Source: Rhodoblastus acidophilus (GTDB lineage: Bacteria > Pseudomonadota > Alphaproteobacteria > Rhizobiales > Beijerinckiaceae). Taken from it: DNA of 64,000 nucleotides. Shown piece after piece: positions 2,028 through 47,200 of the stretch (position 1 is its first letter; every line of letters starts with the position of its first letter). Below the pieces are notes generated by a model, which worked only from the letters and a program-made list of their open reading frames with translations, was not told where the DNA came from and did no database searches. Made by a program: the position numbers and the translations under genes. The DNA is taken from positions 1-64,000 of the forward strand of contig NZ_JAOQNX010000015.1 in the NCBI RefSeq assembly GCF_025961575.1, given 5' to 3'.

Positions 2028-2042
2028 AAACTGGCGCGAGGC
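2028..2042 (-). promoter_or_regulatory. Flagellar box before the DUF1217 operon
   Basis: Read on the minus strand the sequence is GCCTCGCGCCAGTTT, one of ten similar 15-mers in this window. It ends 42 bp before the ATG at 1985. The same GCCTCGCGCCAG core occurs in front of motA, flgF and the TPR/glycosyltransferase gene. The binding factor is unknown; FtcR is the candidate. Confidence 0.7.
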
Positions 2043-2137
2043 TTTCGTTTCCTACGAAAGCTTCGCAAAAGGATTCGGTTTTTTACTGGAACGGACGGGA
2101 TGAGCCCGTCCAAGCCGCCCAAAGGACCGCCGACCTC

Positions 2138-2476
2138 ATGATCGCCACCTGTTTCTCTGCGTCGGACGACATTTCAGTCGTTGCGAACAGCCCCGCGATT
2201 CTGCGCCTGCGCCTGCTTGAAATGCAATTCGCCGCCGCCGGCCCGCTGCCGGAGTCGCAGCGTCAATCGACCTATGACCTGATCGGCGCGCTGAAGCGCA
2301 CCATTGCGGAAAAGCCCTGCCTCAGCTTCGCCGATGTCGTCGCCAAGCTGAAAACCTGCGACGAGTTGCGGCGCGACGGCATCGGCGAACGGGCGGACGA
2401 TTCGCAACTGGACATGATGCGCAACGCCTTCGCCGACCTTCGCGACCAGGCGCGCCAGCTTCAGCCGGCCGCCTAA
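2138..2476 (+). CDS. Hypothetical protein beside the PilZ gene
   Basis: A 112-residue protein starting MIATCFSASDDISVVANS. The body (AILRLRLLEMQFAAAGPLP...) is predicted helical and has no signal peptide or membrane segment. The start at 2138 is preferred to one at 2024 because AGGA lies about 12 bases upstream and the extra N-terminal residues look non-coding. It is followed after 12 bp by the PilZ-domain gene and is probably cotranscribed with it. Family not recognised. Confidence 0.5.
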   Translation: MIATCFSASDDISVVANSPAILRLRLLEMQFAAAGPLPESQRQSTYDLIGALKRTIAEKPCLSFADVVAKLKTCDELRRDGIGERADDSQLDMMRNAFADLRDQARQLQPAA

Positions 2477-2488
2477 TCCGAGCGCCCC

Positions 2489-2935
2489 ATGGCCCCGCGT
2501 GACCTGACTGCTGAGAAAATCTCGCTCGGCCGCCCCTCCATTTTCGACCTGTTCCGGCGCAAGCCGCGCGGCGAAGTCACGTATAGCGTGCTTTCGAACG
2601 GACCGGCCGCCTTCGCGGACGAGCGCCGCGACGCGCCGCGACGGCGGACGCGCCTGCGCTCCGGCAAGGTTTTGGACCGCGCCAACGCCTTTGTGGTGGA
2701 AACCTCGATCCTCGACCGCTCCGCCGGCGGCCTGCGCCTCCGCCTGGCGCGCGACTGCGAGGCGCCCGAGATCTTTCATCTGTTCGACGACGAAACCGAG
2801 AGCATCTTCGCCTATCGCGTGATCTGGAGACGTCAGAACACGCTGGGCGCCCGCATGCTGCCGGGCGGCCCCATTCCGGCGACGCGCCGGCAGATCATCG
2901 AATTGCGCGGAAAATTCTACGCCATCAAGGATTGA
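2489..2935 (+). CDS. PilZ-domain protein
   Basis: A 148-residue protein with the two sequence marks of a PilZ c-di-GMP-binding domain: an arginine-rich RRRTRLRSGKV segment (about residues 51-61) and DRSAGGLRLRL about 20 residues later, matching the RxxxR and [D/N]xSxxG motifs. Family members bind c-di-GMP and often act on motility or surface polysaccharide. It sits between a flagellar operon and ftcR, so a link between c-di-GMP and the flagellum is plausible. A strong hairpin terminator separates it from the convergent ftcR. Confidence 0.75.
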   Translation: MAPRDLTAEKISLGRPSIFDLFRRKPRGEVTYSVLSNGPAAFADERRDAPRRRTRLRSGKVLDRANAFVVETSILDRSAGGLRLRLARDCEAPEIFHLFDDETESIFAYRVIWRRQNTLGARMLPGGPIPATRRQIIELRGKFYAIKD

Positions 2936-2989
2936 CGGCCCGCGACCTCGCCAGGCGCGGCCAGCGCCACCTGAGCCCGCATCACGCAA

Positions 2990-3018: not shown

Positions 3019-3037
3019 CGCAAACGGGATGCCCCGG

Positions 3038-3709
3038 TCAGTTGAGCGTCAGGCAATAGCCGAGGTAACGCTTGGAATCGATGGGGTCGTAACCCAGGCG
3101 GTGGCGCAATTTCTTGCGCAGCTTGCTGATGTGGCTTTCCACCACATCCTCTTCGACCTCATCGTCAAAAAGACCATAGATCGCATTGAAAATCTGGGTT
3201 TTTGTCACCCGCTTCGATTGGTTCTGAACCAAATATTCGAGGATGCGGCGTTCGCGGCGCGGCAGCGGCAGCGCGGTGCCCCCGACCTCGGGGTCGCGGC
3301 CGTCGAAATAGACGCGCATTTCGCCGACGATCTTATATTCGGGCTGGGCCTCCTTGCGGCGGCGGATGGCGCCGACACGGGCCATGATCTCGCGCACATG
3401 AACGGGCTTGCGGACGACATCGTCCATGCCGGCGGCGAACAGCTCAAGAGTCTGCTCTAGCGACGGCGAGTCGTTCAGAGCGATCACGGGCGCGACGCAG
3501 CGTTCGCGGATCAGGCGCGGGAAGGCCTCGCGGTTGGAGCAGTCCCCGATGAGGAAGGCCTCGACCGCCTGGAGATCGGGTTTGTTGGCGCCCGACACCC
3601 ATTCCTCGAATTCGTCCGGGCGCAGGCCCGTCGAAGCCACGCCTTCCCGGTCGAAACTGGTCGCGTAACCCGACTTTACGATCTCGCGATCATCCACAAT
3701 GACGAACAT
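3038..3709 (-). CDS. ftcR: FtcR/Rem-type flagellar transcription regulator
   Basis: A 223-residue OmpR-like regulator that closely follows Brucella FtcR and Sinorhizobium Rem along its whole length, including the landmarks [33 protein letters not shown] and [13 protein letters not shown]. The N-terminal half is a receiver-like fold (about 1-115) and the C-terminal half a winged-helix DNA-binding domain (about 125-223). As in the relatives, the usual phospho-acceptor Asp region is replaced ([10 protein letters not shown]), so it probably works without phosphorylation. FtcR/Rem activates flagellar operons. It is transcribed alone, with a CtrA-type site about 80 bp upstream. Confidence 0.93.
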
Positions 3710-3787
3710 GCCATCCCCCGTTCCCGAAAATCCATTTCAGTCCCGCGTGCGCCGCAGCGAACACACGCTCAAGTTGTGGCAATATGG

Positions 3788-4914: not shown

Positions 4915-6727
4915 TCCCACTGTCCTGAGATTGGCGCCCCGAAGAGGTCTGACGCTGCCGGGTCGATTCGGATTCGCCCTGCCCCCCCGAGGCGCCGAAG
5001 GACGAGCCGGACATTTGCGGCGAAGCCCCCTGGCCCGACGGCCCGCCTTGCGCGCCGCTGGACGAGGAGTCGCCGGACATGCCCGCGGCGCTCGAACTGA
5101 TCGCGACGCCGCCGAGGCCGAGGCCGGCGTCATGGAGCTGGCTTTCCAGCGCGACGCTCTTGTCCGAAATCATGCGGGCGGTTTCGCCGCGATCCGCGAC
5201 AAAAGACAGCTCCAACCGGTCGCCGGAGCTTTTCATCTTGACCTGGAGACCGCCGAGGTCCTGCGGCGTCAGCGTGATCTCGAGGTCGCGGCGCAGGGCG
5301 GGCGTGGGCGTCGGCGGCGGATCGCGCAACTGCGTCGCAGCCGAAGAAGCCGAAGCCTGCACGGCCGCGCTCGAAGCGGGCGCTTGCGCCGCCGCGGGGA
5401 GACTGAAGGACGCGACCTGCGCGAAAGACGCAAGCGGCTCGGCCGCCTGCCCCCGGACATTGGCGTTTTGCAACGCCGCCTTTTCAAAAGACGTCTTTTC
5501 AACAGAGGCTTTTTCGCGCGACGCCTTGTCGCCGGACGAATCTTCGCCGGATGCGTTCCCACCAGACGCGCTCCCGCCGGGCGTGTTGTCCCCGGGGCCG
5601 GCGTTCCTGCCGGAAAAGGACGGCGACGAAGCGGCGCCGCTGAGCTTGGCGTCGACCGGAGGCAACCAGCTCTGCTGCGACACCACGTGAACCGACGTCG
5701 TCTCGGCGGGCTCGGGCTCCGAAGCCGTCGCCTCCGTCCGGGGTTTCGCGGGGCTCGCAAGGGCGGCGCCGATGCGCGCGACCGAATCGCTCGCCGAAGG
5801 CGTGGCGGCTGCGCCGGCAAGCGCCGTCGCGGAGCCGGCCGCAGCGGCGGCCGCAACCGAGGAAGCCGGCGCGGCGAGCACTTGCGCGATCTGCGCCGCA
5901 GCCTGCTGAGCCGTCGCGACGGCCGCGTCCGGCGCCTGAACCGGCGGCGCAAGACCTCCGGTGGCGGGGTCCGTGGTCGAAGCCGATGGCGCCGACGCGC
6001 CCGATCCCGAATCGCTGTCGGATATCGCCTTGGCCGGCGCCGCCGTGGGCGTCACAGCCGCGGCAAACGCGTTGGACGGTCGCGCCGAGAAGTCGGCCCG
6101 GAAAGGCGCCTCTTGCTGGACCGCCGCATCCTGGCGGGACGCGGGGACCGAGAATTTTGCCGGCGCATCGGCGCGGGGCGCGGGCTCGGCGCTCGCCGTG
6201 TCCTGCGTCGTCTGAGCCAGCGCCGCGCTCCCCGGCGCCAAAGTCCCGGAAAATATCTGAGGTGAAGCCGCAGCGGCGGTCGAGACCGTCGCCGTTGACG
6301 CCGACGCACTGGCGGACGTCGAGGCGGCGGCGGTTGAGGCGTCGGACGTCGAGGCGGCCGACGCAAGCGTCGGCGCCTCGCTCTGGCCGGCCCCAACGGC
6401 GGGGGACGCGGGCGCCGCCGTCGCATCCAGCCAGGCGACGGCCATGCGGCTGACCAGCCGCCCGCTGGCGGCGAGCGGAGAGGCCTTGGCGTTGTCCTGG
6501 ACGTCGAGCAATTGGGACAGGCATGAGGCTGCGGAGTCGCCGTCCGCCGCCGCGAAGGCTCCGGACTCTCCGGGGTCTGCCGTCGATGTCGAGGCGTCGG
6601 CCTCCTCGGCGGTTTGCGCCAGCGCCGCGTCGAAGGCGGAGACATCGGCAAAAGCGTCGCGTGACGTCTTGCGCGACAACGCCAACGCGCCGGCGTCCTG
6701 CAACATCGTCTCCGCCGTCCTCATCAT
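4850..6727 (-). CDS. fliK: Flagellar hook-length control protein FliK
   Basis: A 625-residue protein that is mostly Ala/Ser/Gly/Pro-rich and low in complexity, with a recognisable FliK C-terminal domain near residues 475-545 (DLEITLTPQDLGGLQVKMK, then ETARMISDKSVALESQLHDAGL). FliK is an exported ruler that sets hook length and switches the export gate through FlhB. The long disordered N-terminal part fits the ruler role. It starts at ATGATG overlapping the stop of motC and is the fifth gene of the fliF operon. The C-terminal tail after the domain is Ser/Gly-rich and overlaps the transglycosylase gene. Confidence 0.88.
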   Translation of the reverse strand: MMRTAETMLQDAGALALSRKTSRDAFADVSAFDAALAQTAEEADASTSTADPGESGAFAAADGDSAASCLSQLLDVQDNAKASPLAASGRLVSRMAVAWLDATAAPASPAVGAGQSEAPTLASAASTSDASTAAASTSASASASTATVSTAAAASPQIFSGTLAPGSAALAQTTQDTASAEPAPRADAPAKFSVPASRQDAAVQQEAPFRADFSARPSNAFAAAVTPTAAPAKAISDSDSGSGASAPSASTTDPATGGLAPPVQAPDAAVATAQQAAAQIAQVLAAPASSVAAAAAAGSATALAGAAATPSASDSVARIGAALASPAKPRTEATASEPEPAETTSVHVVSQQSWLPPVDAKLSGAASSPSFSGRNAGPGDNTPGGSASGGNASGEDSSGDKASREKASVEKTSFEKAALQNANVRGQAAEPLASFAQVASFSLPAAAQAPASSAAVQASASSAATQLRDPPPTPTPALRRDLEITLTPQDLGGLQVKMKSSGDRLELSFVADRGETARMISDKSVALESQLHDAGLGLGGVAISSSAAGMSGDSSSSGAQGGPSGQGASPQMSGSSFGASGGQGESESTRQRQTSSGRQSQDSGNEPSDVSRDPRGSAGDRGLYL

Positions 6728-8484
6728 CTCTGCCTCGTCATGGTCTTCCTGACGCTGGCGATCACCGCGTCACCCTGGGTCAAAAGCTGTTCCGCCCGCG
6801 TCAGATCGGCGTCGACCGCAGTGGCGTCGCCGGGAGGCGCTTCCTTGAATCCCTTGGCCGGCGGGCGATAGATGCGCCCGGACACATAGGCCGCCGCGTC
6901 GTGGAGCGGCTGGTCGCCGGGCGGCAGTTTGGCGCGATCAACCCCGTCGAGGAGCCGCGCGCTGGTCGCCGGATCGGCGTCGCCGACAGCGGCGAGCGCG
7001 CCATAGACGATCGCGCGCTGACGCTCCTGCGAGTCCTCCGGACTCAGGTCGCGGGCGCGGCGCGCCGCCATCCGCGCCAGATCGACATTGCCAACCACCG
7101 AAGCATTCTGCGCCACCGTCAGATAGATGTTGCGCTTGGTTTCTGGCGTGAGGCTTTCGATGAACGCGTCGAGCTGGCTCCATTCCGACAGTTTGATCGA
7201 CACGGCGACGCGGGCGACGCCGAGCATGAACTGCCGCAGGAAATTCTCGGCATAGGGCGAGGCGCGGAACCGCGCCCAATATTGCCGTCCCAACGCGGCG
7301 AATTTTTCATATTGCCGCTCCTCCGCGAGCAGGCCCACTTCGCGGCGCAGCGCCGCCTCCTCCACCAGCCCGCCCGGCGCCAGCAGCCGCGCAATGTCGA
7401 GCTTGGCGATCGCGCCATCGCGGTCGCGCGGCGTCATCAGGACGGATTGCACGAAGGCCACGGATGAGCCCAGGGAGGGATCGAGCGCCAGCGGATCGAG
7501 CGTGAGCATCACGTCGCGGTCCGGCCCCTCGACATTTTCGAGATAGGCCACCGCCGCCTTGACGACCGGCGCGTCCGAGGCGGGGAGTTTTTGCGAGGCC
7601 AGCGCCTTGCGGCCTGCGGTCGGATTGCCGCCGCTGAGAAGATAGACGATCAGCGCGCGCGCATTGTCTTTCTTCTCCCAGGTTTCCGCGGGCGCCTCGA
7701 AGATGACGCGGCCGAGCCGGCGCAAATGCTTGGGCATTTCCTTGAAAGCTTCGCCGTCGCCGGCGGAGACTTTTTCCTGCAGGTCCTGCAGGCGCCGCAC
7801 CATGAGTTCGATTTCGCTGGGCGGCGATATCGGCAGCGGCTCGATCACCACCTTCTGCTTGCCGCCGCCGCCGCCGCCATGCCCGCCGCCTTCCGGGGCT
7901 TTCCCATGCCCGCCCGCGGCGGCTTCGCCGTCCTTCGCTTCCTTCTCGGCGGGTTTGTTGGCCTCGCCATGGGCTTCGCCCTCCTTCGGCGCGGCGCCCG
8001 CCTCGGAATGTTCGCCTTCGGGCTTGGGAGCGGCGCCCTTGTCGGCGCCGCCGCCCTCCGGCGCCGCCGGCTGGGTCCCGTCCGGCTGCGCTCCATTCGC
8101 ATTGGTCCCCGCGACCTGCGTTCCGCCCTGGGGCGGCGCCTGCATCATCCTCCAGAGAAAATAGCCGCCGCCCCCGCCGCCGAGCAGCAGCAGCGCCGCC
8201 GCCGCGGGAACAAGGATGCGGGCCTTGCCCTTCAGCCGCGGAATGAATCGCTTGAGCCCTTTGCGCGGCGCCTCGATGCTCTCCTCGCCCTCCGGCTTCG
8301 CACCCTCGGCCTCCGCCGCCTTCTTCTTCGAAAATTTGGGCAGGGAGAATTTCGGCAGAGAGATTTTCGGCGCGGAGATTTTCGGCAACGCGATCTTGGG
8401 CAACGCGATTTTCGGCAGCGCGACCTTGGGCAGCGAAATCTTCGGCAGCGAAATCTTGGGCAGGGAGAACTTCGGCAGCTTCAT
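6724..8484 (-). CDS. motC: MotC periplasmic motility protein with an unusual repeat N-terminus
   Basis: A 586-residue MotC. In Sinorhizobium MotC is periplasmic, binds MotB and is needed for rotation. Residues 3-52 are ten consecutive five-residue repeats of the type LPKIS. A basic segment follows, then a membrane segment near 90-112, a Gly/Ala/Glu-rich linker to about 215, and the globular MotC domain (from VVIEPLPISPPSEIELM to the end). The repeats would sit in the cytoplasm. The ATG overlaps the motB stop (ATGA) and the 3' end overlaps fliK, so translation is coupled. The upstream in-frame extension is rejected because it lies inside motB. Confidence 0.88.
   Translation of the reverse strand: MKLPKFSLPKISLPKISLPKVALPKIALPKIALPKISAPKISLPKFSLPKFSKKKAAEAEGAKPEGEESIEAPRKGLKRFIPRLKGKARILVPAAAALLLLGGGGGGYFLWRMMQAPPQGGTQVAGTNANGAQPDGTQPAAPEGGGADKGAAPKPEGEHSEAGAAPKEGEAHGEANKPAEKEAKDGEAAAGGHGKAPEGGGHGGGGGGKQKVVIEPLPISPPSEIELMVRRLQDLQEKVSAGDGEAFKEMPKHLRRLGRVIFEAPAETWEKKDNARALIVYLLSGGNPTAGRKALASQKLPASDAPVVKAAVAYLENVEGPDRDVMLTLDPLALDPSLGSSVAFVQSVLMTPRDRDGAIAKLDIARLLAPGGLVEEAALRREVGLLAEERQYEKFAALGRQYWARFRASPYAENFLRQFMLGVARVAVSIKLSEWSQLDAFIESLTPETKRNIYLTVAQNASVVGNVDLARMAARRARDLSPEDSQERQRAIVYGALAAVGDADPATSARLLDGVDRAKLPPGDQPLHDAAAYVSGRIYRPPAKGFKEAPPGDATAVDADLTRAEQLLTQGDAVIASVRKTMTRQR
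8329..8478 (-). repeat. Tandem 15-bp coding repeat in motC
   Basis: Ten tandem 15-bp units encode LPKFS, LPKIS, LPKVA, LPKIA and APKIS variants without interruption. Units differ at single bases, so it is a diverged in-frame minisatellite rather than a recent expansion. Confidence 0.9.
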
Positions 8485-9656
8485 GACGACGCCTTGCGCA
8501 GCAGGATTTCGATGCGGCGGTTCTCCGGCGCCTCGGGCTTGGCGGCGTTCACCGGCTTGCGGTCGGCATAGGCTTCGATCCGCTCCAGGCGCCCGGCGTC
8601 GAGACCGCCGCGAATTAGCATGAATTGGGCCATTTGCGCGCGGGACGCCGAGAGCCGCCAATTGTCCGACGCGCCCGTGCGGAACGGCCGCGAATCCGTG
8701 AACCCGCGCAGGACGACGCCGCCGGGCCGGTTCTTGAGCATGCGCGCGATGCGCTCCATGAGATGAACCATTTTCGGATTGGGCTGCGACGAGCCGAGTT
8801 CGAACATGCCGAACTTGTCATTGTCGGTCAGGCTGATCAGCAGGCCCTCGCGCGTCGCCTTGACCTCGAACCGCGGCTGGTTGTCGCCGATCTCGTCCTT
8901 GGCGGCGACGGCGAGCTGCTTTTGCAGCGCCTCGGCGTCGGCTTTTTCCGCCGCCTCCTGCGCGGCCTCCGCGGCGGCGGCCTGCTGCGCCGGCGTCTGC
9001 GCGGGCGTCTGCGCCGTCTTCTGGCCGGGTTTGGCGCTCTCCGCCTTGACAGGAGACTCCGATTTCCCGCCGGAGGGGGCGGGCGGCGCCGGCGGCGTCT
9101 CGTCCTCGGGCTCCTCGGCGTCGTCGGCGGCGCCCTCGGCGGCGCGGAACGGATCGCGATAGGCGTCGGCCGATCCGGCTTCCGCAGCCGAGCCCGCCTT
9201 GTTCTTTCTTTCCATGGGCGCCTTGCCGGCGATCTGCTCGAGCGCGGCATAGGGGTTCTGGAACAAAGTGTCCTCGTTCATCAGCGCCTTGGCGTTGATG
9301 TCCTTGAGCGGCTCCTTGCCCTTCTGCTCCATCTTGCCCTGCTGCTGCCCCTGGGGCGGCGCCATGTCGGGCTCGCCCTCGTTCACGGGCGGCTTGTCGT
9401 CGGTCGGCTTTTCGTCGCGGATGCCGCGCTTGTTCTTGGCGAAATCCTCCATCTTCACCGGATTGAAATAGCGGGCGATGATGGTCTGGCTGTCCTTGTT
9501 GGTCGAGTTGAGAATCCACAACACCAGGAAGAACGCCATCATCGCCGTCACGAAGTCGGCATAGGCGATCTTCCAGGCGCCGCCGTGATGGCCGTCCTCA
9601 TGCGCGCCGTGGCGGCGAACAATGATGATTTCCTGTTGTTCCGCGTCTTCACTCAC
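8481..9656 (-). CDS. motB: Flagellar motor stator protein MotB
   Basis: A 391-residue protein with one N-terminal membrane helix carrying the proton-binding aspartate (D34 in AYADFVTAMMAFF). A long Pro/Ala/Glu-rich periplasmic linker follows (about 70-250), then an OmpA/MotB peptidoglycan-binding domain (LRGFTDSRPF...NWRLSASRAQ). It forms the ion-driven stator with MotA, which is encoded at 32.2 kb rather than next to it, as in rhizobia. It starts with GTG and overlaps the fliH-like stop by 8 bp. The linker is longer than in enteric MotB, as is usual where MotC binds. Confidence 0.95.
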   Translation of the reverse strand: MSEDAEQQEIIIVRRHGAHEDGHHGGAWKIAYADFVTAMMAFFLVLWILNSTNKDSQTIIARYFNPVKMEDFAKNKRGIRDEKPTDDKPPVNEGEPDMAPPQGQQQGKMEQKGKEPLKDINAKALMNEDTLFQNPYAALEQIAGKAPMERKNKAGSAAEAGSADAYRDPFRAAEGAADDAEEPEDETPPAPPAPSGGKSESPVKAESAKPGQKTAQTPAQTPAQQAAAAEAAQEAAEKADAEALQKQLAVAAKDEIGDNQPRFEVKATREGLLISLTDNDKFGMFELGSSQPNPKMVHLMERIARMLKNRPGGVVLRGFTDSRPFRTGASDNWRLSASRAQMAQFMLIRGGLDAGRLERIEAYADRKPVNAAKPEAPENRRIEILLRKASS

Positions 9657-12110: not shown

Positions 12111-12157
12111 ACCCTATTCCAATGAAAGGTCATTTTCGATCCGCATCATCGGCGGTT

Positions 12158-12172
12158 AAACTTGCGTGGAGG
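12158..12172 (-). promoter_or_regulatory. Flagellar box before fliF
   Basis: On the minus strand the sequence is CCTCCACGCAAGTTT, 47 bp before the fliF ATG. It keeps the CGCAAGTTT right half of the shared element and varies in the left half. Confidence 0.65.
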
Positions 12173-12207
12173 TTTTGCCTCATGTTCCGGGGCGGCCGCG
12201 CCGAGGT

Positions 12208-13830
12208 TCAGCGGCCGAACCCCCGGCCGATTTCGGCGCTGATCGTCGCAAACAGCGCCGTCCAATCGTCGCCGTCGGGGCAGCGGAACAGCCGCATGGT
12301 CGGGTACCAGGGCGAATCCGAGCGCGCATTCATCCAGCGCCATTCGGAAATGTGGCGCAAGGCGACCCAGACCGGACGGCCCAGCGCCCCCGCCAGATGG
12401 GCGATGGAGGTGTCGCAGGTGATGACGAGGTCGAGATTGGCCATCACCGCCGCGGTGTCGATGAACGCATCCGCGCCGGCGTCGAAGGCGTCGCCGAACA
12501 GCTGGACCCGCGTCGCCAGCGCCTGCGGCAATTCCTCCTGGCCCGGGTCTTTCTGCAGGCAGAAGAACTGCGCCGGCGCCGTCGCCAGGGGCGACAGTCT
12601 GCCGGCGGGAATCGACCGGCGCGGATCGACGCGGAAGTCGACATTGCCGCGCCAGCACAGGCCGATCTTCGGCCCGGCGCCGGCCATGCGCTCGCGCCAG
12701 AACGCCACCCGCTCGGGTTCGGCTTGCAGATAGGGGATTGGCGCGGGAATCGAGTCGCGCCGCGTCGCGCAGGCGCGCGGCAGGCTGCTGATGGCGAGCG
12801 TCGCGTCGAAATCCCCCGCGAGATCATGCTCGTCGCGCCAGGCGATCTCGACGCCGCTCGACGCCAGCAGCCGGCGCATTTTCGCCGGTCCCGCGAAGGT
12901 CACGGCGGCGCCGGCGCGGGCGAGCAGCACGATGTAGCGGAAGAACTGGATGGTGTCGCCGAGGCCATGGTCGTTGACGACCAGAATTTTCCGTCCGGCG
13001 AGGCTGCCGGGATCGGCGAGATCGAAATGGGCCGGCGAGCTTGCAACCGGGCGCCGGCCTCTGTCCCAGCGGTATTCATAGCCCTCCCACCCCTCGGCGA
13101 AGTCGCCGAGCAGCAGCTGCAGGCAGCCGCGATTGCTCTGGCCCTCCGCCGACTCAGGCTCCAGCGCCAGCGCCCGGTCGAAAGCCCGCATCGCCTCGTC
13201 GAACAGGCCGAGCTCCTTGTTGACGATGCCGAGCCCGCAATAGGCCAGCACGTAATCCGAGCGCAGCGCCACCGCGCGCAGATAGGCCTGGCGGGCTTCG
13301 CGATAACGCCCCAGGCGCATCAGCGCATTGCCGAGATTGAGATGGGCGTTGGCCATGGCGCCGTCCAAAGCGATGGCGCGCCCGTAGGCCTCGATCGCCT
13401 CCTCGAGCCGTCCCAGCGCGAAATAAGCGGCGCCGCGGTTGCAATGGGCGCCGGCGTGGGTCGGCCGCAGCGCGCAGGCCCGTTCGAGCCGCGCCAGCGC
13501 CTCCTCCACATGCTCATGCTCCAGCAGCAGGACGCCGCTGTTGAACCAGCCCAGCGCGTCGTCGGGCTTCAGCTCCAGAGCGCGATTGTAGAAGGCCAGC
13601 GCGCCCGCGGCGCGCCCCTTGCGCTGCAGAATGCAGCCGCCGGCGAACAGGGCCTCGGGAAAGTCGGGCCGCAGCCTGAGCGCCTGGTCGAGCAGGTCGA
13701 TGGCGGCGTCGAGGCGGCCCGCCGCCTGTTCGGCCATGCCGAGGCGATAGAGATGGTCCGGCGCGCCGATGGCTGCGCCGCGCGGAGAGGAGGGCGACGT
13801 CGCGCGCCGCGATTGGATTTTCGAACGCAT
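12208..13830 (-). CDS. TPR protein with glycosyltransferase-like C-terminus
   Basis: A 540-residue protein. Residues about 25-260 are six or more tetratricopeptide repeats (for example GRLEEAIEAYGRAIALD and GRYREARQAYLRAVAL). The C-terminal half has the GT-B heptosyltransferase-like landmarks seen in TPR/glycosyltransferase proteins: NDHGLGDTIQFFRYI, then CDTSIAHLAGALGRPVWVAL. It stands directly downstream of the flagellin gene but behind a terminator, and it has its own flagellar box. A role in modifying flagellin is inferred from that. No clear ribosome binding site precedes the ATG, so the start is less certain. Confidence 0.75.
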   Translation of the reverse strand: MRSKIQSRRATSPSSPRGAAIGAPDHLYRLGMAEQAAGRLDAAIDLLDQALRLRPDFPEALFAGGCILQRKGRAAGALAFYNRALELKPDDALGWFNSGVLLLEHEHVEEALARLERACALRPTHAGAHCNRGAAYFALGRLEEAIEAYGRAIALDGAMANAHLNLGNALMRLGRYREARQAYLRAVALRSDYVLAYCGLGIVNKELGLFDEAMRAFDRALALEPESAEGQSNRGCLQLLLGDFAEGWEGYEYRWDRGRRPVASSPAHFDLADPGSLAGRKILVVNDHGLGDTIQFFRYIVLLARAGAAVTFAGPAKMRRLLASSGVEIAWRDEHDLAGDFDATLAISSLPRACATRRDSIPAPIPYLQAEPERVAFWRERMAGAGPKIGLCWRGNVDFRVDPRRSIPAGRLSPLATAPAQFFCLQKDPGQEELPQALATRVQLFGDAFDAGADAFIDTAAVMANLDLVITCDTSIAHLAGALGRPVWVALRHISEWRWMNARSDSPWYPTMRLFRCPDGDDWTALFATISAEIGRGFGR

Positions 13831-13850
13831 GCGACGAAAACAACCACGAC

Positions 13851-13865
13851 AAGCTGGCGCGAGGC
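13851..13865 (-). promoter_or_regulatory. Flagellar box before the TPR/glycosyltransferase gene
   Basis: The minus-strand sequence GCCTCGCGCCAGCTT matches the consensus at every position. It ends only 20 bp before the annotated ATG, closer than the 36-48 bp of the other units, so either the leader is short or the start codon lies further in. Confidence 0.65.
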
Positions 13866-13880
13866 TGAGTCGCTTGCCAA

Positions 13881-17765: not shown

Positions 17766-17801
17766 GGAGCGGGTCTTCCTTCGCCCGCACTTTCGCCTTG
17801 C

Positions 17802-17816
17802 AAGCTTGCGCCGCGC
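17802..17816 (-). promoter_or_regulatory. Flagellar box between flgI and motE
   Basis: The minus-strand sequence is GCGCGGCGCAAGCTT, 36 bp before the motE ATG. Its presence suggests an internal promoter dividing the long flgB-fliP operon. Confidence 0.6.
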
Positions 17817-17838
17817 TGGCGCATCGCCATCCTGTTAA

Positions 17839-20571: not shown

Positions 20572-20991
20572 TCAGGTCCTCAAGAGATCGATGGTTGCGG
20601 AAAGCATCTGGCGGGATTGCTTCACGATTTGCAGATTGGCCTCGTAAGACCGATTGGCTTCGCGCATGTCGGCCATTTCGAAGAGCAGATCGACATTGGG
20701 CATTTTCACATGGCCGCTGGCGTCGGCGGCGGGATGTCCCGGCAGATGTTCGGTGCGGAACGGGGTGGTGTCCGCGCCGATCGACTTGACCTGCACCAGG
20801 TTCTCGCCGCTGGCGCGATCGAGTTCGCTCTCGAAAGTGATGGTCTTGCGCGAATAGGGGTCGGCGCCGGCGGTCGAGCCGGTCGAATGCGCATTGGCGA
20901 TGTTTTCCGCGACGATGCGCAGACGGGTCGACTGGCTGTGCAGGCCCGAACTGGCGATATGCATGGAGGAGACAAGAGGATCGATCGCCAT
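20572..20991 (-). CDS. flgC: Proximal rod protein FlgC
   Basis: A 139-residue rod protein starting [20 protein letters not shown], with [20 protein letters not shown] and a C-terminal [16 protein letters not shown] helix typical of FlgC. The start at 20991 is fixed by the family N-terminus and follows flgB by two bases. Confidence 0.96.
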
Positions 20992-20993
20992 GG

Positions 20994-21374: not shown

Positions 21375-21422
21375 GAACCACCCTCCTGATGTTTGTTAAG
21401 CTGAACAGAAGATTAGGCGCGC

Positions 21423-21437
21423 AATCTTGCCTCAGGC
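21423..21437 (-). promoter_or_regulatory. Flagellar box before flgB
   Basis: The minus-strand sequence is GCCTGAGGCAAGATT, 48 bp before the flgB GTG. It overlaps the last codons of the upstream ATP-grasp-like gene, so that gene's 3' end is part of the flgB promoter. Confidence 0.65.
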
Positions 21438-22643
21438 TGGCTCAGGGGTCTGCTCGTGGTCGGCGCCGCGCGCCGCGACCATGCGGCGGAAGGCGTCGAA
21501 CAGACGGCGCATATGCGCGGATTTGTAGGGGAAGGTGACGGGATTATCGAGATCGTGCGCGATCATGGCGGTGCCGATCTCGAAGATCAGCAGGCGGCCG
21601 TCGGCGGCCTCCGCGCAATCGATCTGCAGATAGTCGAGACCGAGGCGCCGCTTCAGCCCGTCGAGCGCCGCCGCATGCCGCGCGGCAAACGCTTCAAAGT
21701 CGCGCATAAACATCTCTTCCTCGGCGCGATGGGCGGGATTGTGCAGCATGTCGGCGTTGAGATAATGCACCATCCAGCGCGACGACACGGCGTAATGGAT
21801 CGGCCAAGCCTGTCCGTCGACCAGGGCGATTCGAATCTTGCGAAACTTGCCGTCGGCGCCGGAATAATCGACGAAGGGCGCGACATAGAATTCGTCGCCG
21901 GAATGGCCGCGCAGGTAGGCGCCTAGCGCCGCCGCGGTTTCGATCTTTTCCAGCTCTTCGCCGGCATGGGAATCGACGGGGCGGATGATCAGCGGATATG
22001 AACCGCCCTCCCCGGCCGCGAGCGCGGCGCGGGCGATGCGGCGGTTTTCCGGGAAATGCAGCCCCTCGACTTCGCGCAGCAAACGCCAGGCGCCGTCGCG
22101 CGTCAGGCGGGCGATGGCGGCGGGATGGTTGAGGATGGGGCTCGGCCAATAGGGCGCGGCCTCGTCGATCAGGCCCAGGATCTTCTGGTTGGCGCAGGAT
22201 TCCGCCACACCGACCAGGGCGACGTCATGGGGCGGCAGCCGAAGGAAATCCGCCTCGCTCTGGACATAGAGGAAATCGACATTGATCGGCGCGTCCTCCA
22301 GCAGGAATTCCACCGGCGTGTTGGCCATGAAATCGCCGGGGGCGAGCAGGACGAGGAGACGGGTCGCGCCGGGGATGCGCGCGTTTTGCGGGTAGAGCTT
22401 GCGGCGCGCCAGCGCCTCGCCCTGCACGCGCAGCCGCGCCGCGCGCGACCCGCGCAACAGCTCGACCGTGGACAGATCCATCAGCGCATTGGCGTCATCC
22501 GGATTGGCGGCGATTCGCGCCTGCAGCGCCTGCGCGATCGGCGCCAGCGATTCGCCGCGCATGGCGCGGCGCGTCAGCGCGGCCAGGCCGATCAGCGGCG
22601 GTTCGATTGAAACGGAAGACGAGGCGCAAGGCGAGGCGGACAT
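21432..22643 (-). CDS. ATP-grasp-like protein with TPR-like N-terminus
   Basis: A 403-residue soluble protein. Residues about 15-70 look like a short helical repeat ([18 protein letters not shown]). The rest resembles ATP-grasp ligases: an [18 protein letters not shown] stretch, [18 protein letters not shown] in the lysine/nucleotide-loop position, and the metal-binding end [23 protein letters not shown]. The substrate is unknown. It lies between flgB and cheR on the same strand and ends inside the flgB promoter region. It may modify a peptide or protein, perhaps of the motility system, but that is a guess from position. Confidence 0.6.
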
Positions 22644-32098: not shown

Positions 32099-32113
32099 GT
32101 GCTTGCGCCGAAC
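32099..32113 (-). promoter_or_regulatory. Flagellar box before flgF (proximal copy)
   Basis: The minus-strand sequence is GTTCGGCGCAAGCAC, 36 bp before the flgF ATG. The right half CGCAAGC fits the shared element; the left half is poor. Confidence 0.45.
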
Positions 32114-32123
32114 ATTAACCATG

Positions 32124-32170
32124 GCGCTGGCGCGAGGCTGACTCCCCGGGCGTCAGCCTCGCGCCAGCCC
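32124..32170. promoter_or_regulatory. Divergent pair of flagellar boxes forming a palindrome (flgF/motA)
   Basis: CTGGCGCGAGGCTGAC and its exact complement GTCAGCCTCGCGCCAG are separated by nine bases. Each arm carries one GCCTCGCGCCAG box, one facing flgF (32124-32138) and one facing motA (32156-32170). The motA box ends 43 bp before the motA GTG. Confidence 0.8.
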
Positions 32171-32213
32171 GGGCAGGCACTAATGGAGGCCAAGCTTCAA
32201 GCGGAGAGCCCAC

Positions 32214-38476: not shown

Positions 38477-38518
38477 TTCTTTTCGCGCGCCCTCGAACCT
38501 TGACCAAACTAGCGGCTT

Positions 38519-38533
38519 AAACTTACGGGAGGC
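38519..38533 (-). promoter_or_regulatory. Flagellar box before the flgJ-like gene
   Basis: The minus-strand sequence is GCCTCCCGTAAGTTT, 42 bp before the flgJ ATG. It overlaps the last codons of the fliJ-like gene. Confidence 0.65.
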
Positions 38534-38969
38534 TTGAGCGCAATTTTTGCTTTTGCGCGTTTTCTTCACGCGAACCGGCATCCACGCTTGAAAACGCTTT
38601 GGCCGCGAGACGCTCGCCGATCTCCAGCAACTCCAGCTTCTCGTCCTCGCGCGCGATCCGGCGCGCCGCCTCGTCGACGATCTTCTCCAGCGCCTTCTTC
38701 TGCGCCGTGCGCTTCATCAGCTGCGACTTCTGTTCCTTCTCCCGCTCATTCAGCTCGTGTTCGCGCCGCTGCGTCTGGATGAGGTGGCGGCAGGCGAGGC
38801 CGAGGATGAACGGATCGTCGCGCGCGCCGAGGATTTCGAAGACTTCGCGCCGCTCCGCCTCGATTTCGCTCTTCTTGCGCTGGATTTCGGCCAGCTCGGC
38901 CTCCTCCTTCTGGTGAAGCTGTTTCTTCACCTGCAGCAGGCGGTTGAGGCTTTTGTGTCTCTGTCGCAT
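38523..38969 (-). CDS. fliJ: FliJ-like coiled-coil export protein
   Basis: A 148-residue, highly charged coiled-coil protein (LLQVKKQLHQKEEAELAEIQ... REHELNEREKEQKSQLMKR). This is the layout of FliJ, which connects the FliI ring with FlhA. It follows fliR with a TGATG overlap. FliJ proteins are poorly conserved, so the assignment rests on architecture and position. Confidence 0.65.
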   Translation of the reverse strand: MRQRHKSLNRLLQVKKQLHQKEEAELAEIQRKKSEIEAERREVFEILGARDDPFILGLACRHLIQTQRREHELNEREKEQKSQLMKRTAQKKALEKIVDEAARRIAREDEKLELLEIGERLAAKAFSSVDAGSREENAQKQKLRSSLP

Positions 38970-41808: not shown

Positions 41809-41849
41809 GTCTCATCCTCGTTGAATCGGTGGACCGAAGATGGACGGGC

Positions 41850-41864
41850 AAGCTTGCGTCAAAC
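41850..41864 (-). promoter_or_regulatory. Flagellar box before flhA
   Basis: The minus-strand sequence is GTTTGACGCAAGCTT, 41 bp before the flhA ATG, in the 62-bp gap after fliQ. The right half is a perfect match. Confidence 0.65.
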
Positions 41865-41870
41865 TTCCGC

Positions 41871-43369: not shown

Positions 43370-44416
43370 CTATAGGAAGTTGACCAGGCTCAGCTTGTGC
43401 AGCTGCGCGGTCAGCGAAAAGGCGACCTGCAACTGGTTCGAGAGCGCATTGACCTGCGTGCCGACCAGATAGGGGTCGACCGTCTCCTTGGCGTTGATCT
43501 GCGTGGTCAACACATCCTGCTGGAGGCTGATCGAGGAATTCGCCTGCTTGAGCGTGTTCTGCATCGTCCCCAAGGCGGCATTGGCTTCGATCAACTGGTT
43601 GTTGCCGGTGTTCAAAGTCTTCTGCGCCGCGGAGACCAGCGCGGAATAGGTGGTCTGGTTCAGGGCGAGATTGCCGAATTCGGCGAACATCACCAGGCCC
43701 TTGGCCGTGTTCTGGAACGCCGGATCATTGGCGGTGATCGAGGTGGTCACCGTCTGGCTCGTGCTGATCCGGTTGGTCAGCGGCGTCGCCGAGGCCGAGG
43801 ACCAGTCCTGCGACCAGTTGGCGCCGGTGAACAGATTGGCGAACGGGCCATTCAGGAAGTTGGTCATGTCCGTCGCGGTGATCGTGCTGACCTGCGGGTC
43901 GTTGACACTGAAGCCGAACGTGGCCTGGAAAGCCGCGCGCACGGAGGCCTGGGCGCTGTCCGTGTAGGACTTCATCGGCGCCGTATCGGTGTTCTGTCCG
44001 CCGAACGCATAGACCCCGCCGGCGTCCGAATTGGCGCTGGTGGTGAAGCTGTCCAAAGCGCCTTGCGCCGCCTTCTGCAAGGCGTAGGAGCCGGTTGTGG
44101 ACGGCTGGACCGAAGTGGCGTTCACCGACTGCGCCAGCGCGGTCGATGCGACCTGCTGAAGGTTTCCCAGCGCGCTCAGAGCGGTGTCGAGGTGAGTGGA
44201 CACAAGCGCGTTGGATTGCGTCAGCGCATCGAGATCCGCCACCTGCTGGTGCAGCGCCACCACGGCGCCCGATCCCGCGCCCAAGGACAGTCCGATGTCC
44301 GCCAGACGGCCGGTGGAATTCTCCACCTCGAGCACCGTCATCTGGCTTTGCATGCGCGTGACGCTGCTGGCAAGGATGTTCGCCAGGGTGGCGCTAGAAA
44401 CGGAGTTCACGGTCAT
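43370..44416 (-). CDS. flgL: Hook-filament junction protein FlgL
   Basis: A 348-residue flagellin-like protein with an N-terminal helix (ILASSVTRMQSQMTVLEVENSTGRLADIGLSLG) and a C-terminal flagellin-type helix (NALSNQLQVAFSLTAQLHKLSLVNFL). With FlgK it joins hook and filament. It starts one base after the flgK stop. Confidence 0.9.
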   Translation of the reverse strand: MTVNSVSSATLANILASSVTRMQSQMTVLEVENSTGRLADIGLSLGAGSGAVVALHQQVADLDALTQSNALVSTHLDTALSALGNLQQVASTALAQSVNATSVQPSTTGSYALQKAAQGALDSFTTSANSDAGGVYAFGGQNTDTAPMKSYTDSAQASVRAAFQATFGFSVNDPQVSTITATDMTNFLNGPFANLFTGANWSQDWSSASATPLTNRISTSQTVTTSITANDPAFQNTAKGLVMFAEFGNLALNQTTYSALVSAAQKTLNTGNNQLIEANAALGTMQNTLKQANSSISLQQDVLTTQINAKETVDPYLVGTQVNALSNQLQVAFSLTAQLHKLSLVNFL

Positions 44417-44417
44417 G

Positions 44418-45908
44418 TCACGACACCGCCTGGAGAAGCGCGCCGAACATGTTGTTGATCGTGGAAATCAATTTAGCCGACGCTTGATAGGAGTTTTCAT
44501 ATTCGAGCATCATCGACATCTGCGAGTCGATGTTGACGCCGGTCGCGTTGGACAGCGCCTGCGACGCCTGGGACAGCAAGGTCGCCTGATAGGTCGCGTC
44601 ATTGGAGGTCGTCTGATACTGGGCGTTCAGCCAGCTCGCCGATTCCGAGGCATAGGTCTTGACGCTGTTGGCGGTCGAGAGCGCCGTTCCCGAGGGAAAG
44701 GTTTGCGACGCGCTGATCGCCGTGATGTCGGCGAGCAGCGCCGCATTATATCCGGAGGCGCCCGTCGTGTTCTGCACATAGGCGGCGCCGTTGATACCGC
44801 CGTCGCGGATCAGGTTGTAGCTGCCGCCCTGGGCGGGGTCCACCGCGGTGCTGACCGAGATGTCGCCAGCCAGCCCGGGAATGGCCGTCGAACCGGGAAG
44901 CGCCGGGCCGCCGCTGTAGGTGAACAGGCCGGCGAGCTGGCCGCCCGTGCTTTGGTTGGTCTCGGCGAAAGCGTTGATGAGGCCGCCGGCGAGCGCGTCG
45001 AGCTGCGACTGGTAGGTCGGCGCGATCGTGTCGCGCAATTGCGCATAGCCCGCCAGAGCGCCGGATTGAATCGGCATGACGGCGTTTGCGCCGGTCACCG
45101 GCACGCCGTCGACATAGACCGCCGCGCCCGTCGTCGAGGCCGAATAGGCGGTCGTCGCCTGCATCGACACGTCGCGCGGCGTGGTTTCGAACAGGGTGAC
45201 GCCGCTGTCCGTGTAGATCGACATCGAGCCGTTGGAATTGCCCACGGTGGTGATGCCGATTTCCTTCGACAGGCTTTGCAGGATGGTGTCGCGCTCGTCG
45301 AGCGCGTCGGTGATGTCGGCGCCGCTCGCGGTTCCCTGGACGATCACGCTGTTGACCGACTGGAACTGCGTGAGCAGCGTGTTGATGGTCCCCACCGAGG
45401 TGGCCATGTTCTGGTCGGCGGTCTTGCGCACGTTCTGTGTGACGGTGGTGGCGTCGTTGAGCCCGTTGACGAGCCTGTCGGCGGCGGTGACCACGGCCGC
45501 GGCGGCCGACGCATTGCTCGGCGACGACGAATAAGTCTGCAAGGCCGAGGTCAACGCCTGGAGCAGCGTCGAGGGCGATTGCGCCGCCGTGGTCGAGTCC
45601 GTCGTGGTGGTGGCGTCGGCGGCGGTCTTTTGCAGAAGCGTCACGCCGTCGGACAGCGCCTGCGCCGCCGCGCTGCTCGAGGTTCCCGAGAGCATGGCGT
45701 TGAACAGCGAGGCGCTGGTGAGGTTCCTGACCGACTGGATGACCCCCGCGCCGCCATAGACGGTGACCACATTGGCCACTTTCGCGGAGACATAGCCCGT
45801 CTTGTTCTGCGCATTGGAGACATTGCGCGCGACGACCGCCTGCAAGCCCGCATTGGTGGCGAGCGACGTCGTCGCGGTGTTGAGGGCGTTGGTGAGGCCT
45901 CCCCACAT
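44418..45908 (-). CDS. flgK: Hook-associated protein FlgK
   Basis: A 496-residue FlgK. The N-terminal rod-type motif VVARNVSNAQNKTGYVSAKV and the C-terminal helix (LEYENSYQASAKLISTINNMFGALL) are clear, and DALDERDTILQSLSKEIGI is typical of FlgK. It is second in the flgE operon. Confidence 0.95.
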   Translation of the reverse strand: MWGGLTNALNTATTSLATNAGLQAVVARNVSNAQNKTGYVSAKVANVVTVYGGAGVIQSVRNLTSASLFNAMLSGTSSSAAAQALSDGVTLLQKTAADATTTTDSTTAAQSPSTLLQALTSALQTYSSSPSNASAAAAVVTAADRLVNGLNDATTVTQNVRKTADQNMATSVGTINTLLTQFQSVNSVIVQGTASGADITDALDERDTILQSLSKEIGITTVGNSNGSMSIYTDSGVTLFETTPRDVSMQATTAYSASTTGAAVYVDGVPVTGANAVMPIQSGALAGYAQLRDTIAPTYQSQLDALAGGLINAFAETNQSTGGQLAGLFTYSGGPALPGSTAIPGLAGDISVSTAVDPAQGGSYNLIRDGGINGAAYVQNTTGASGYNAALLADITAISASQTFPSGTALSTANSVKTYASESASWLNAQYQTTSNDATYQATLLSQASQALSNATGVNIDSQMSMMLEYENSYQASAKLISTINNMFGALLQAVS

Positions 45909-45930
45909 GGCTTTTCATCCGTCCTTTTTG

Positions 45931-47142
45931 TCAGACCTGCAGGTTGACCAGCGTGTCCATCAATTGCGCGCTGGTCGAGAACACCTTGGAATTGGCCTGG
46001 TAGTTGCGCTGGGCAACGATCATGTTGGTGAGTTCGGTCGCCACATCGACCGTGGATTGCTCGAGCGAACTCGACTTGATCGAGCCGAACTGCCCGGTGC
46101 CCGCGGTGCCGACCGTCGCCTGTCCCGACAGCAGGTTGGGCGAGAACACATTGCCGGAGCCGACCAGAAGGTTTTCCGGGCTCGCGACATTGGCGAGCGG
46201 AATCGTGTAGGCGGGAATGGTCGAGCCATTGGCGAGCTGGTAGGACAAGGTGCCATCCGTGCCGATGTTGACGGACTTGACGGCAGAGGCGGCGTTGCCA
46301 TTGACCTCCGATGTCGACACCGTATAGGCGCCCGCGAGTTGGGTCATGGCGGAGAGGTCCAGCGCCATGGTGTTGCCGCCGGAGCCGGGGACCGAAATGC
46401 TCAGCGAGGCCGCCGCGGACAATTTGCCGGACGCGTTGAAGGACAGCGACGTATTGCCGATCGACGTGGCCAGATTGTTCGCGTCATAGGCCTGGACGTC
46501 CCAGCTGTTCGCGCCCGTCTTCAGGAAATAGACGTTGATCGTCTGCGCAGCGCCCTGGCTGTCGTACATGACGATCGAGGTTTTTTCGTTGTAATTGCTC
46601 GAACTGGCCGTGCCGGTCCCGGCCGTGTCCGTGGACGGCAGGTTGGCGGTGAAGGTCCCTGTCGTGCTCGGCGTCGCCGAGAGGCCGGAGGACGCAATAT
46701 TGACGACCTGCATGCCGTCGAGCGAATTGGACGCCATGGTCGGCGTTCCATTGGCAAGGCTGTAGCCCATCAGGTAATAGCCCGCCGCATTCACCAGATT
46801 GCCGCTGGCATCCGGAACGAAAGAGCCGGCGCGGGTGAGATAGTTCTGTCCCGAGCTGTCGGAAACGACGAAATAGCCCTGGCCCTTGACGGCGAGGTCG
46901 GTCGTCGAGCTCGTCCCGGAAATCGTGCCCTGTCCGGCGGCGGCGACGCGGGTGGTGGTGGTCACGCCGCCGACCTGCGTCTGGCCGACGCCGGCGCTGT
47001 TGACGAGCGTCGAAAACTCAGTGTCCGCCTGCTTGTAGCCGACGGTCGAGGAATTGGAGATGTTCTGACCGATATTGCTCAAATAATTGGATTGCGCATT
47101 CATGCCAGTCACACTGGCGTTCATGGCGTCATAGAGACCCAT
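45931..47142 (-). CDS. flgE: Flagellar hook protein FlgE
   Basis: A 403-residue hook protein with the N-terminal motif YLSNIGQNISNSSTVGYKQADTEF, the FlgE core (DLAVKGQGYFVVSD) and the C-terminal helix (ELTNMIVAQRNYQANSKVF). It forms the hook. The ATG at 47142 has GGAG eight bases upstream. It leads a seven-gene unit, with the flagellar box 43 bp upstream. Confidence 0.97.
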   Translation of the reverse strand: MGLYDAMNASVTGMNAQSNYLSNIGQNISNSSTVGYKQADTEFSTLVNSAGVGQTQVGGVTTTTRVAAAGQGTISGTSSTTDLAVKGQGYFVVSDSSGQNYLTRAGSFVPDASGNLVNAAGYYLMGYSLANGTPTMASNSLDGMQVVNIASSGLSATPSTTGTFTANLPSTDTAGTGTASSSNYNEKTSIVMYDSQGAAQTINVYFLKTGANSWDVQAYDANNLATSIGNTSLSFNASGKLSAAASLSISVPGSGGNTMALDLSAMTQLAGAYTVSTSEVNGNAASAVKSVNIGTDGTLSYQLANGSTIPAYTIPLANVASPENLLVGSGNVFSPNLLSGQATVGTAGTGQFGSIKSSSLEQSTVDVATELTNMIVAQRNYQANSKVFSTSAQLMDTLVNLQV

Positions 47143-47185
47143 TGTGCTGCTCCTGCCCTTTGGCTCCCCCCTTTTTTGCGCTTGC

Positions 47186-47200
47186 ATGCTTGCGCGAAGC
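47186..47200 (-). promoter_or_regulatory. Flagellar box before flgE
   Basis: The minus-strand sequence is GCTTCGCGCAAGCAT, 43 bp before the flgE ATG. It lies in the intergenic region shared with the divergent GGDEF gene. Confidence 0.7.

What the first reader, a model, noticed from the sequence alone, without database searches (positions are those of the whole stretch)
2028..47200. A shared 15-bp box in front of ten flagellar transcription units
Read toward each gene, aligned 15-mers precede the DUF1217 operon (2028-2042), fliF (12158-12172), the TPR/glycosyltransferase gene (13851-13865), motE (17802-17816), flgB (21423-21437), flgF (32099-32113 and 32124-32138), motA (32156-32170), flgJ-like (38519-38533), flhA (41850-41864) and flgE (47186-47200). 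The consensus is GCCTCGCGCMAGYTT, with the right half CGCMAG best kept. In nine of ten units the box ends 36-48 bp before the start codon (20 bp for the TPR gene). The position, the orientation and the restriction to flagellar units argue strongly against chance. It is most likely the FtcR/Rem operator or a dedicated promoter element, which I do not know to be described.
Basis: partly seen in the sequence, partly recalled or inferred. Interest (0 to 1): 0.88.

Follow-up and report, generated by a model that had tools for sequence, protein, structure and literature searches.

The report
Shared operator-promoter for flagella and chemoreceptors
In this purple bacterium, a short repeated DNA address sits just before most of its flagellar gene groups and before about a third of its chemical-sensor genes; it looks like the docking site of the flagellar master switch FtcR, and the same site is found in rhizobia and other relatives.

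Summary
The box is real and more than chance. All 11 sites lie where stated. The 15-mer is the middle of a longer element: a tandem direct repeat with an 11-bp period, CMAGCYT-N4-CMAGYTT, followed after 7 bp by a -10-like TAnnnT at fixed spacing: an operator-promoter whose repeats cover the -35 region, as expected for an OmpR/PhoB-type activator. Such a regulator, an FtcR/Rem homolog, is encoded in the window (3038-3709, minus). The element recurs before flhA, fliF, flgE and flgJ in FtcR-gene neighbourhoods across Hyphomicrobiales and before orthologous units in four Rhodoblastus relatives; none was seen before the 10 flhA genes of the other flagellar type that I scanned. Corrections: flgF1 is weak; an eleventh unit (box 22703-22717) was missed; the element is not restricted to flagellar units: 11 of 37 chemoreceptor genes carry it, against 5 of 278 control genes. 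Binding by FtcR is inferred, not shown; a published Brucella FtcR motif differs. Most likely an uncharted operator of a known master regulator.

The parts
3038..3709 (-). FtcR/Rem-type orphan response regulator (P0001, 223 aa), the proposed binder
   Evidence: Trans_reg_C 55.5 bits, over cut-off; Response_reg 22.6 bits, under its cut-off of 30.2; 57-86% identical to 31 homologs aligned from FtcR neighbourhoods; winged-helix model with helix 188-205
2028..2045 (-). operator of the DUF1217 operon (18-bp tandem repeat); -10-like GATTGT at 2015-2020
   Evidence: same site before the same start in L069-L072 and in G001, G008, G005, G006
12158..12175 (-). operator of the fliF-headed, same-strand gene string that runs towards ftcR; -10-like GATGAT at 12145-12150
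   Evidence: score 15.3-19.7 in 6 of 6 relatives with a fliF row; also found by model R1
13851..13868 (-). operator of the TPR gene; TTGTTT in the -10 register at 13838-13843; only 20 nt to the ATG
   Evidence: G001 22.3, the other three Rhodoblastus rows show none; G006 has a 22.3 site between its motE and fliF boxes, presumably this gene
17802..17819 (-). operator of motE-flgH-fliL-fliP; -10-like GAAAGT at 17789-17794
   Evidence: 18.1-19.1 in 4 of 4
21423..21440 (-). operator of flgB/C-fliE-flgG-flgA-flgI; -10-like TAATCT at 21410-21415
   Evidence: 18.3 in 3 of 3 rows, plus G006 18.7; found by R1
   Evidence: G001 16.6, G008 and G005 14.1 each
   Evidence: G001, G008, G005 17.8 each, G006 14.4
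32099..32113 (-). doubtful first flgF box
   Evidence: leave-one-out score 9.0, 169 control positions as high; of four relatives nearly the same letters only in G001
32153..32170 (+). operator of motA-fliM-fliN-fliG-flhB, divergent from the flgF operator; CACTAA in the -10 register at 32178-32183
   Evidence: 15.2-19.7 in 4 of 4
38519..38536 (-). operator of flgJ; -10-like TAGTTT at 38506-38511
   Evidence: found by model R1, built without Rhodoblastus sites; sites of 16.7-19.5 in G001, G008, G005
41850..41867 (-). operator of flhA; -10-like CATCTT at 41837-41842
   Evidence: found by R1; box before 10 of 20 flhA genes of this type
47186..47203 (-). operator of flgE-flgK-flgL and following genes; CAAAAA in the -10 register at 47173-47178
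   Evidence: best window hit of R1; 13.2-21.0 in 6 of 6 rows

Best explanation
The box is the central part of a composite class II operator-promoter of the flagellar master activator FtcR/Rem. Two FtcR protomers bind head to tail to CMAGCYT-N4-CMAGYTT (11-bp repeat). If the TAnnnT is a -10 hexamer at -12 to -7, the two half-sites lie at about -37 to -31 and -26 to -20, so the dimer replaces the -35 contact and recruits RNA polymerase with the housekeeping sigma factor to start about 17-28 nt before most of the genes. One switch thereby turns on most basal-body, hook and motor units together with part of the chemoreceptors. In the window the flagellin gene, flgK and flgL have no box of their own. 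ftcR lies in the same-strand gene string headed by boxed fliF and has no box directly upstream, which predicts positive feedback. Shown: sequence, repeat period, spacing, conservation, gene targets. Inferred: FtcR as binder, activation, sigma factor, start sites, feedback.
For: Direct repeat: identity at shift 11 is 59/110 in the window, against at most 0.364 at the other shifts from 4 to 15; 264/483 in 69 sites from other genomes, next best 0.364 (shifts 4 to 14). The -10: of 187 hits selected on the 18-mer alone, 126 have A..T at the predicted offset, at most 21 at any of 19 other offsets; in the window 7 of 11 have both letters, P 7e-9 against base composition. Conservation: 80 FtcR-gene loci hold 258 hits of 14 or more, 73 loci with at least one; reversed matrix 19 hits in 18 loci. 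133 of the 258 lie before an ORF start, 119 of these before homologs of this window's genes; 60 permuted matrices average 1.2, at most 10. Model R1, built without Rhodoblastus sites, has five flagellar boxes as its top five window hits. The regulator: FtcR was found in 21 of 60 genomes, flhA of this type in 20, both in 19. A box was found before 10 of 20 such flhA and 0 of 10 of the other type. Helix 188-205 is nearly invariant in 32 homologs. Chemoreceptors: 11 of 37 genes against 5 of 278 control genes at 12 or more; 8 of 37 against 0 of 278 at 14 or more. Literature: FtcR binds upstream of fliF in B. melitensis, as cited in PMC9456535 (passages); the box lies before fliF in Ochrobactrum and Brucella endophytica loci.
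Against: No binding, footprint, start-site or mutant data. The published B. melitensis FtcR ChIP motif TGTGGGCA (PMC9456535) is different; it has no exact copy in the window and 2-3 mismatches at best in 200 nt upstream of 12 starts. Ten of 20 FtcR-type flhA genes show no box in the scanned 200 nt. 7 of 80 FtcR loci have no hit and 125 of the 258 hits lie before no called ORF. With model R2, 23 of 34 own-genome matches at E of 3 or less lie outside the window; of 19 of these examined, 16 precede neither a flagellar gene of this window nor a chemoreceptor. flgF1, motA, flgE, TPR and P0002 have only one of the two -10 letters. R1 gave hits in 6 of 39 FtcR-negative genomes as well as in 14 of 21 positive ones; in 3 of those 6 a hit precedes a flagellar gene or fragment (the one in G010 by my reading of the sequence). 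Two of six relatives have a box 144-211 nt before flagellin, against a strict class II limit.
Confidence: 0.85

Rival explanations
1. The repeat is bound by a different regulator of the same flagellar lineage (another OmpR-family protein, or the LuxR-type VisNR pair), and FtcR is only co-inherited with the cluster.
For: This genome has 17 Trans_reg_C matches, so 16 other candidates. Co-occurrence with FtcR cannot be separated from co-occurrence with the flagellar type.
Against: Of the 17 matches only FtcR lies in the window, and its helix 188-205 is nearly invariant in 32 homologs. The review PMC8429497 (passages) reports that Azorhizobium and B. diazoefficiens have rem homologs but no visNR. 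VisNR was not searched for in this genome.
Confidence: 0.1
2. It is a plain promoter of an alternative sigma factor, read without an activator.
For: There is a fixed spacing between an upstream block and a -10-like block.
Against: The upstream block is a direct repeat with an 11-bp period, which a -35 element would not need. The consensus has no GG-N10-GC as in sigma-54 promoters and no TAAA-N15-GCCGATAA as in FliA promoters (both recalled, judged by eye). The -10 is of the housekeeping TAnnnT kind.
Confidence: 0.04
3. Chance or base composition: the boxes are GC-rich words picked out by eye.
For: The individual box is short, and one site (flgF1) scores like background.
Against: Leave-one-out, reversed-matrix, permuted-matrix, control-gene and ortholog tests all exceed background.
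Confidence: 0.01

Closest known systems
FtcR (Brucella), Rem (Sinorhizobium, Agrobacterium) and LafR (Bradyrhizobium) flagellar master regulators
   Same: An OmpR-type orphan regulator encoded in the same flagellar cluster type. Rem is described as directly activating class II genes and as an aspartate-less response regulator (PMC9812332, passages); FtcR as binding upstream of fliF (PMC9456535, passages). In 32 aligned homologs the residue at the likely phospho-acceptor position 56 is Asp in only 11, P0001 among them (counted by eye).
   Different: The one binding motif seen in print, TGTGGGCA from Brucella ChIP-seq, does not match this element. The original Rem and FtcR papers (PMC1595514, PMC1797214) were not held, so whether they already show such a box is not known to me.
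PhoB pho-box promoters (recalled)
   Same: Two direct half-sites at 11-bp spacing lying across the -35 region with a -10 just downstream.
   Different: Different half-site letters, other target genes, and in the FtcR family a receiver that often lacks the phospho-acceptor.
OmpR/PhoB-family structures bound to DNA: CosR (8uvk), PmrA (4s04), KdpE (4kny), RpaA with the RNAP alpha CTD (9dvt)
   Same: Among the ten best Foldseek matches of the FtcR model.
   Different: 17-25% identity; whole-chain TM-scores are 0.39-0.47 with rmsd of 14-17 A, probably because the two domains are placed differently.

Membership tests
Operator of an OmpR/PhoB-family regulator | two head-to-tail half-sites 10-11 bp apart | tested here: met
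   59/110 identity at shift 11 in the window; 264/483 in 69 outside sites
Operator of an OmpR/PhoB-family regulator | fixed distance to a -10 element (class II position) | tested here: met
   126 of 187 at one offset, at most 21 at 19 others
Operator of an OmpR/PhoB-family regulator | bound by the regulator | not testable with these tools
   needs EMSA, footprint or ChIP
FtcR/Rem/LafR regulator (P0001) | C-terminal OmpR-type winged helix | tested here: met
   PF00486 55.5 bits against cut-off 26.2; model
FtcR/Rem/LafR regulator (P0001) | degenerate receiver without a conserved phospho-acceptor | tested here: inconclusive
   Response_reg under cut-off and position 56 is D in only 11 of 32 homologs, but P0001 itself has D56; the assignment of position 56 is mine
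FtcR/Rem/LafR regulator (P0001) | encoded within the class-1 / lateral-type flagellar cluster | tested here: met
   window 3038-3709, on the same strand as fliK, motB and fliF; FtcR and the matching flhA both found in 19 of 60 genomes, one alone in 3
FtcR/Rem/LafR regulator (P0001) | needed for flagellar gene expression | not testable with these tools
   no mutant data for Rhodoblastus
Published B. melitensis FtcR ChIP motif | TGTGGGCA upstream of targets | tested here: not met
   0 exact in the window; 2-3 mismatches at best upstream of 12 starts
Sigma-54 flagellar promoter | GG-N10-GC (-24/-12; recalled) | tested here: not met
   absent from consensus A1 and A2, judged by eye
CtrA box | TTAA-N7-TTAA (recalled) | tested here: not met
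   absent from consensus A1 and A2, judged by eye

The most novel reading that the evidence does not exclude
One composite element, an FtcR tandem operator rigidly joined to a -10, kept across Hyphomicrobiales families, is the general class II promoter of the whole motility programme in these bacteria: basal body, hook, motor and about a third of the chemoreceptors. It is driven by a master activator that need not be phosphorylated. The genome-wide motif TGTGGGCA published for Brucella FtcR is then not its flagellar operator.
Probability: 0.55. Interest if true: 0.68.

Novelty: new member of a known kind. Interest (0 to 1): 0.58.

Why it matters
It gives a letter-level, genome-searchable definition of the probable target site of the flagellar master regulator of rhizobia and relatives. 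It predicts which genes the regulator controls (including chemoreceptors far from the flagellar cluster), predicts start sites to within a few bases, and conflicts with a published binding motif, so it is directly testable. It also offers a case of an aspartate-less type of response regulator at class II promoters.

Tried and rejected
Rejected: flgF1 as a true site. Rejected: window site 7140-7157 (score 14.9); although kept in three relatives it lies inside an open frame (6724-8661) with no gene start near, so protein conservation explains it. Rejected: sigma-54, FliA and CtrA readings, by consensus. Set aside: the inverted repeat between flgF and motA as a hairpin; it is explained by two divergent operators. 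Literature: ten searches and passages of PMC9456535, PMC8639532, PMC8429497, PMC8781033, PMC8857273, PMC5996035, PMC6406911 and PMC9812332 showed no such box. These are CC-licensed papers only, seen as listings and passages, and the two founding papers were not held.

Limits of the counts: the 18-column matrix and its scans of other loci are trained on the 11 window sites, flgF1 included. Model R1 comes from 69 of 71 non-redundant sites (two left out by me: L075:10738, which overlaps another site, and L114:3308). Model R2 comes from 54 distinct sequences: 12 window sites plus 45 hand-picked of 59 hits in four relatives (14 dropped: inside coding sequence, opposite-strand, or without a gene I wanted, one of them a second site near the DUF1217 gene of G008), 57 before duplicates were removed, so its hits in those clusters are by construction; its chemoreceptor result is not. 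The FtcR residue counts use 67 of 80 loci caught by a crude filter. Of the flhA genes of the other type only the 10 for which loci were returned were scanned; a further site before flhA of G019, 170 nt upstream, appears only with the wider region and is not counted. The R2 matches outside the window were examined for 19 of 23. Chemoreceptor counts use 37 of the genes behind 40 domain matches; one stretch had no usable start. In one search the DUF1217 query start was wrong, so that row is void; the site is covered. In some searches minus-strand loci were read unrotated; corrected.
Full report
What was checked. The window lies in a genome of the genus Rhodoblastus: its FtcR is 98% identical to that of R. 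acidophilus DSM 142.

Is it more than chance? I built an 18-column matrix and scored each site with itself left out. Against 400 kb of the same genome, 10 of 11 sites are equalled by at most 8 of 799,320 scored positions. The first flgF site fails, with 169 positions as high. With the full matrix, hits of 16 or more number 10 in the 64-kb window and 1 in 400 kb elsewhere; at 14 or more, 13 and 6.

Anatomy. The 15-mer is an incomplete view. The sites are tandem direct repeats with an 11-bp period, CMAGCYT-N4-CMAGYTT: identity at shift 11 is 59/110, against at most 0.364 at the other shifts from 4 to 15. In 69 sites from other genomes it is 264/483, next best 0.364. A second block appears downstream at a fixed place. 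In 144 non-redundant sites of 187, A stands at box position 24 in 85% and T at position 28 in 72%, although neither was used to find the sites. Of the 187, 126 show A..T at that offset and at most 21 at any of 19 other offsets. In the window 9 of 11 have the A, 9 of 11 the T and 7 of 11 both (P 7e-9 against base composition). This reads as a TAnnnT -10 hexamer 7 bp after the second half-site.

The regulator. A search for OmpR-type DNA-binding domains in the genome gave 17 matches, one of them inside the window at 3038-3709 on the minus strand. That protein, P0001, passes the Pfam cut-off for the winged-helix domain and falls below it for the receiver. It is 57-86% identical to 31 homologs taken from FtcR-gene neighbourhoods, in which E191, H193 and S195-L201 do not vary, within the model's helix 188-205. 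Its best structural matches are OmpR/PhoB-type regulators, several bound to DNA. The residue at the likely phospho-acceptor place is Asp in 11 of 32, P0001 among them. This agrees with the description of Rem as an aspartate-less regulator (PMC9812332, passages) and of LafR as not requiring phosphorylation (PMC8429497, passages), though P0001 itself keeps the Asp.

Conservation. In 80 named FtcR-gene loci the matrix finds 258 hits of 14 or more in 73 loci; the reversed matrix finds 19 in 18 loci. Of the 258, 133 lie before an ORF start and 119 of those before homologs of this window's genes, mainly flhA (37), fliF (30), flgE (26) and flgJ (11); permuted matrices give 1.2 on average and at most 10. 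The other 125 lie before no called ORF. Model R1, built from 69 of these sites and none from Rhodoblastus, has five flagellar boxes as its top five hits in the window. In up to seven unnamed relatives the box stands before orthologous fliF, motE, flgB, flgF, motA, flhA and flgE, while most genes inside the operons, and ftcR itself (at most 4.1 in seven relatives), lack it. An eleventh unit, P0002, has a box at 22703-22717 that is kept in three relatives.

Link to FtcR. Among 60 relatives, FtcR was found in 21 and flhA of the matching type in 20, both in 19. The single flhA-only genome, G010, is a draft in 280 contigs; that ftcR lies in an assembly gap is my guess. A box was found before 10 of 20 flhA genes of this type and 0 of 10 scanned of the other type. 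With model R1, 14 of 21 FtcR-positive and 6 of 39 FtcR-negative genomes gave a hit. Of 28 loci of such hits that I examined in genomes other than this one, 15 precede a homolog of a window gene or of a chemoreceptor, one of these only a 29% relative of FtcR, and 13 gave no such match. FtcR-less Rhodoblastus genomes G002, G004 and G009 owe 3 of 5, 1 of 2 and 1 of 1 of their R2 hits to what look like remnants of a lost flagellar cluster: shortened flgE and fliF frames, DUF1217, and a flgE-motC fusion that still follow a box; the two R2 hits of FtcR-less G007 show no such gene.

Beyond the flagellar cluster. Model R2 ranks eight window sites first in the genome; 23 of its 34 matches at E of 3 or less lie outside the window. 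Of 19 of these examined, 3 precede chemoreceptor genes (two of them paralogs) and 16 do not. I therefore fetched upstream regions of the chemoreceptors: 39 stretches, 38 with a usable start, 37 different genes. Eleven of 37 have a box of 12 or more, against 5 of 278 control genes; 8 against 0 at 14 or more; 13 against 0 with R2 at 12 or more (Fisher P 4e-8, 2e-8 and 1e-13). Of 11 chosen on the 18-mer alone, 8 have the A, 9 the T and 6 both. So the element is not restricted to flagellar units; it marks motility and chemotaxis genes together.

How it most likely works. FtcR binds as a head-to-tail dimer over the -35 region and recruits the housekeeping polymerase to the adjacent -10. The box on fliF heads the same-strand gene string that runs to ftcR, which predicts positive feedback; a 138-nt gap before ftcR leaves room for a further promoter. 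The flagellin gene (13938-14861) has no hit of 9.5 or more upstream in the window, in line with a class II to class III order, but 2 of 6 relatives have one 144-211 nt upstream. Binding, activation, sigma factor and feedback are inferred.

What is known. Rem, FtcR and LafR are established flagellar regulators. The only binding motif I saw in print, TGTGGGCA (PMC9456535, passages), is not this element. Ten literature searches of CC-licensed papers showed no such box, but the two founding papers were not held, so priority is open. The kind of thing, an OmpR-type tandem operator, is known; this operator, its rigid promoter context and the chemoreceptor targets appear new as far as those searches reach.

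Noticed in passing
unnamed relatives G002 (C4:121367-125322), G004 (C21:3254), G009 (C155:1467): What look like remnants of a deleted flagellar cluster in Rhodoblastus relatives without FtcR or matching flhA: shortened flgE and fliF frames, DUF1217 and a flgE-motC fusion, each still following a box.
   Followed up: partly
window 20572-21381, minus: FlgB and FlgC appear to be one 269-aa open frame; the Pfam rod domain is matched at residue 140 and the C-terminal domain at 222.
   Followed up: no
window 21432-22643, minus: A 403-aa protein without a confident Pfam match (weak TPR hit, E 0.0065) sits behind its own box between flgB and cheR, so it is probably a motility gene of unknown role.
   Followed up: partly
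window 13938-14861 and 43370-45908, minus: The flagellin gene and flgL/flgK have no box of their own in the window, but two of six relatives have one 144-211 nt before flagellin.
   Followed up: partly
window 12208-13830, minus: A TPR plus glycosyltransferase-9 gene beside flagellin carries the box only 20 nt before its ATG, so either the transcript is nearly leaderless or the true start lies further in.
   Followed up: no
G001:C62:14081: A second box in front of a start that resembles the beginning of fliF, beside the real fliF in G001.
   Followed up: no
G000:C21:72846: A strong match to the element about 100 nt before a bacteriohemerythrin-like gene (my reading of the sequence), possibly a further motility-linked target.
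   Followed up: no
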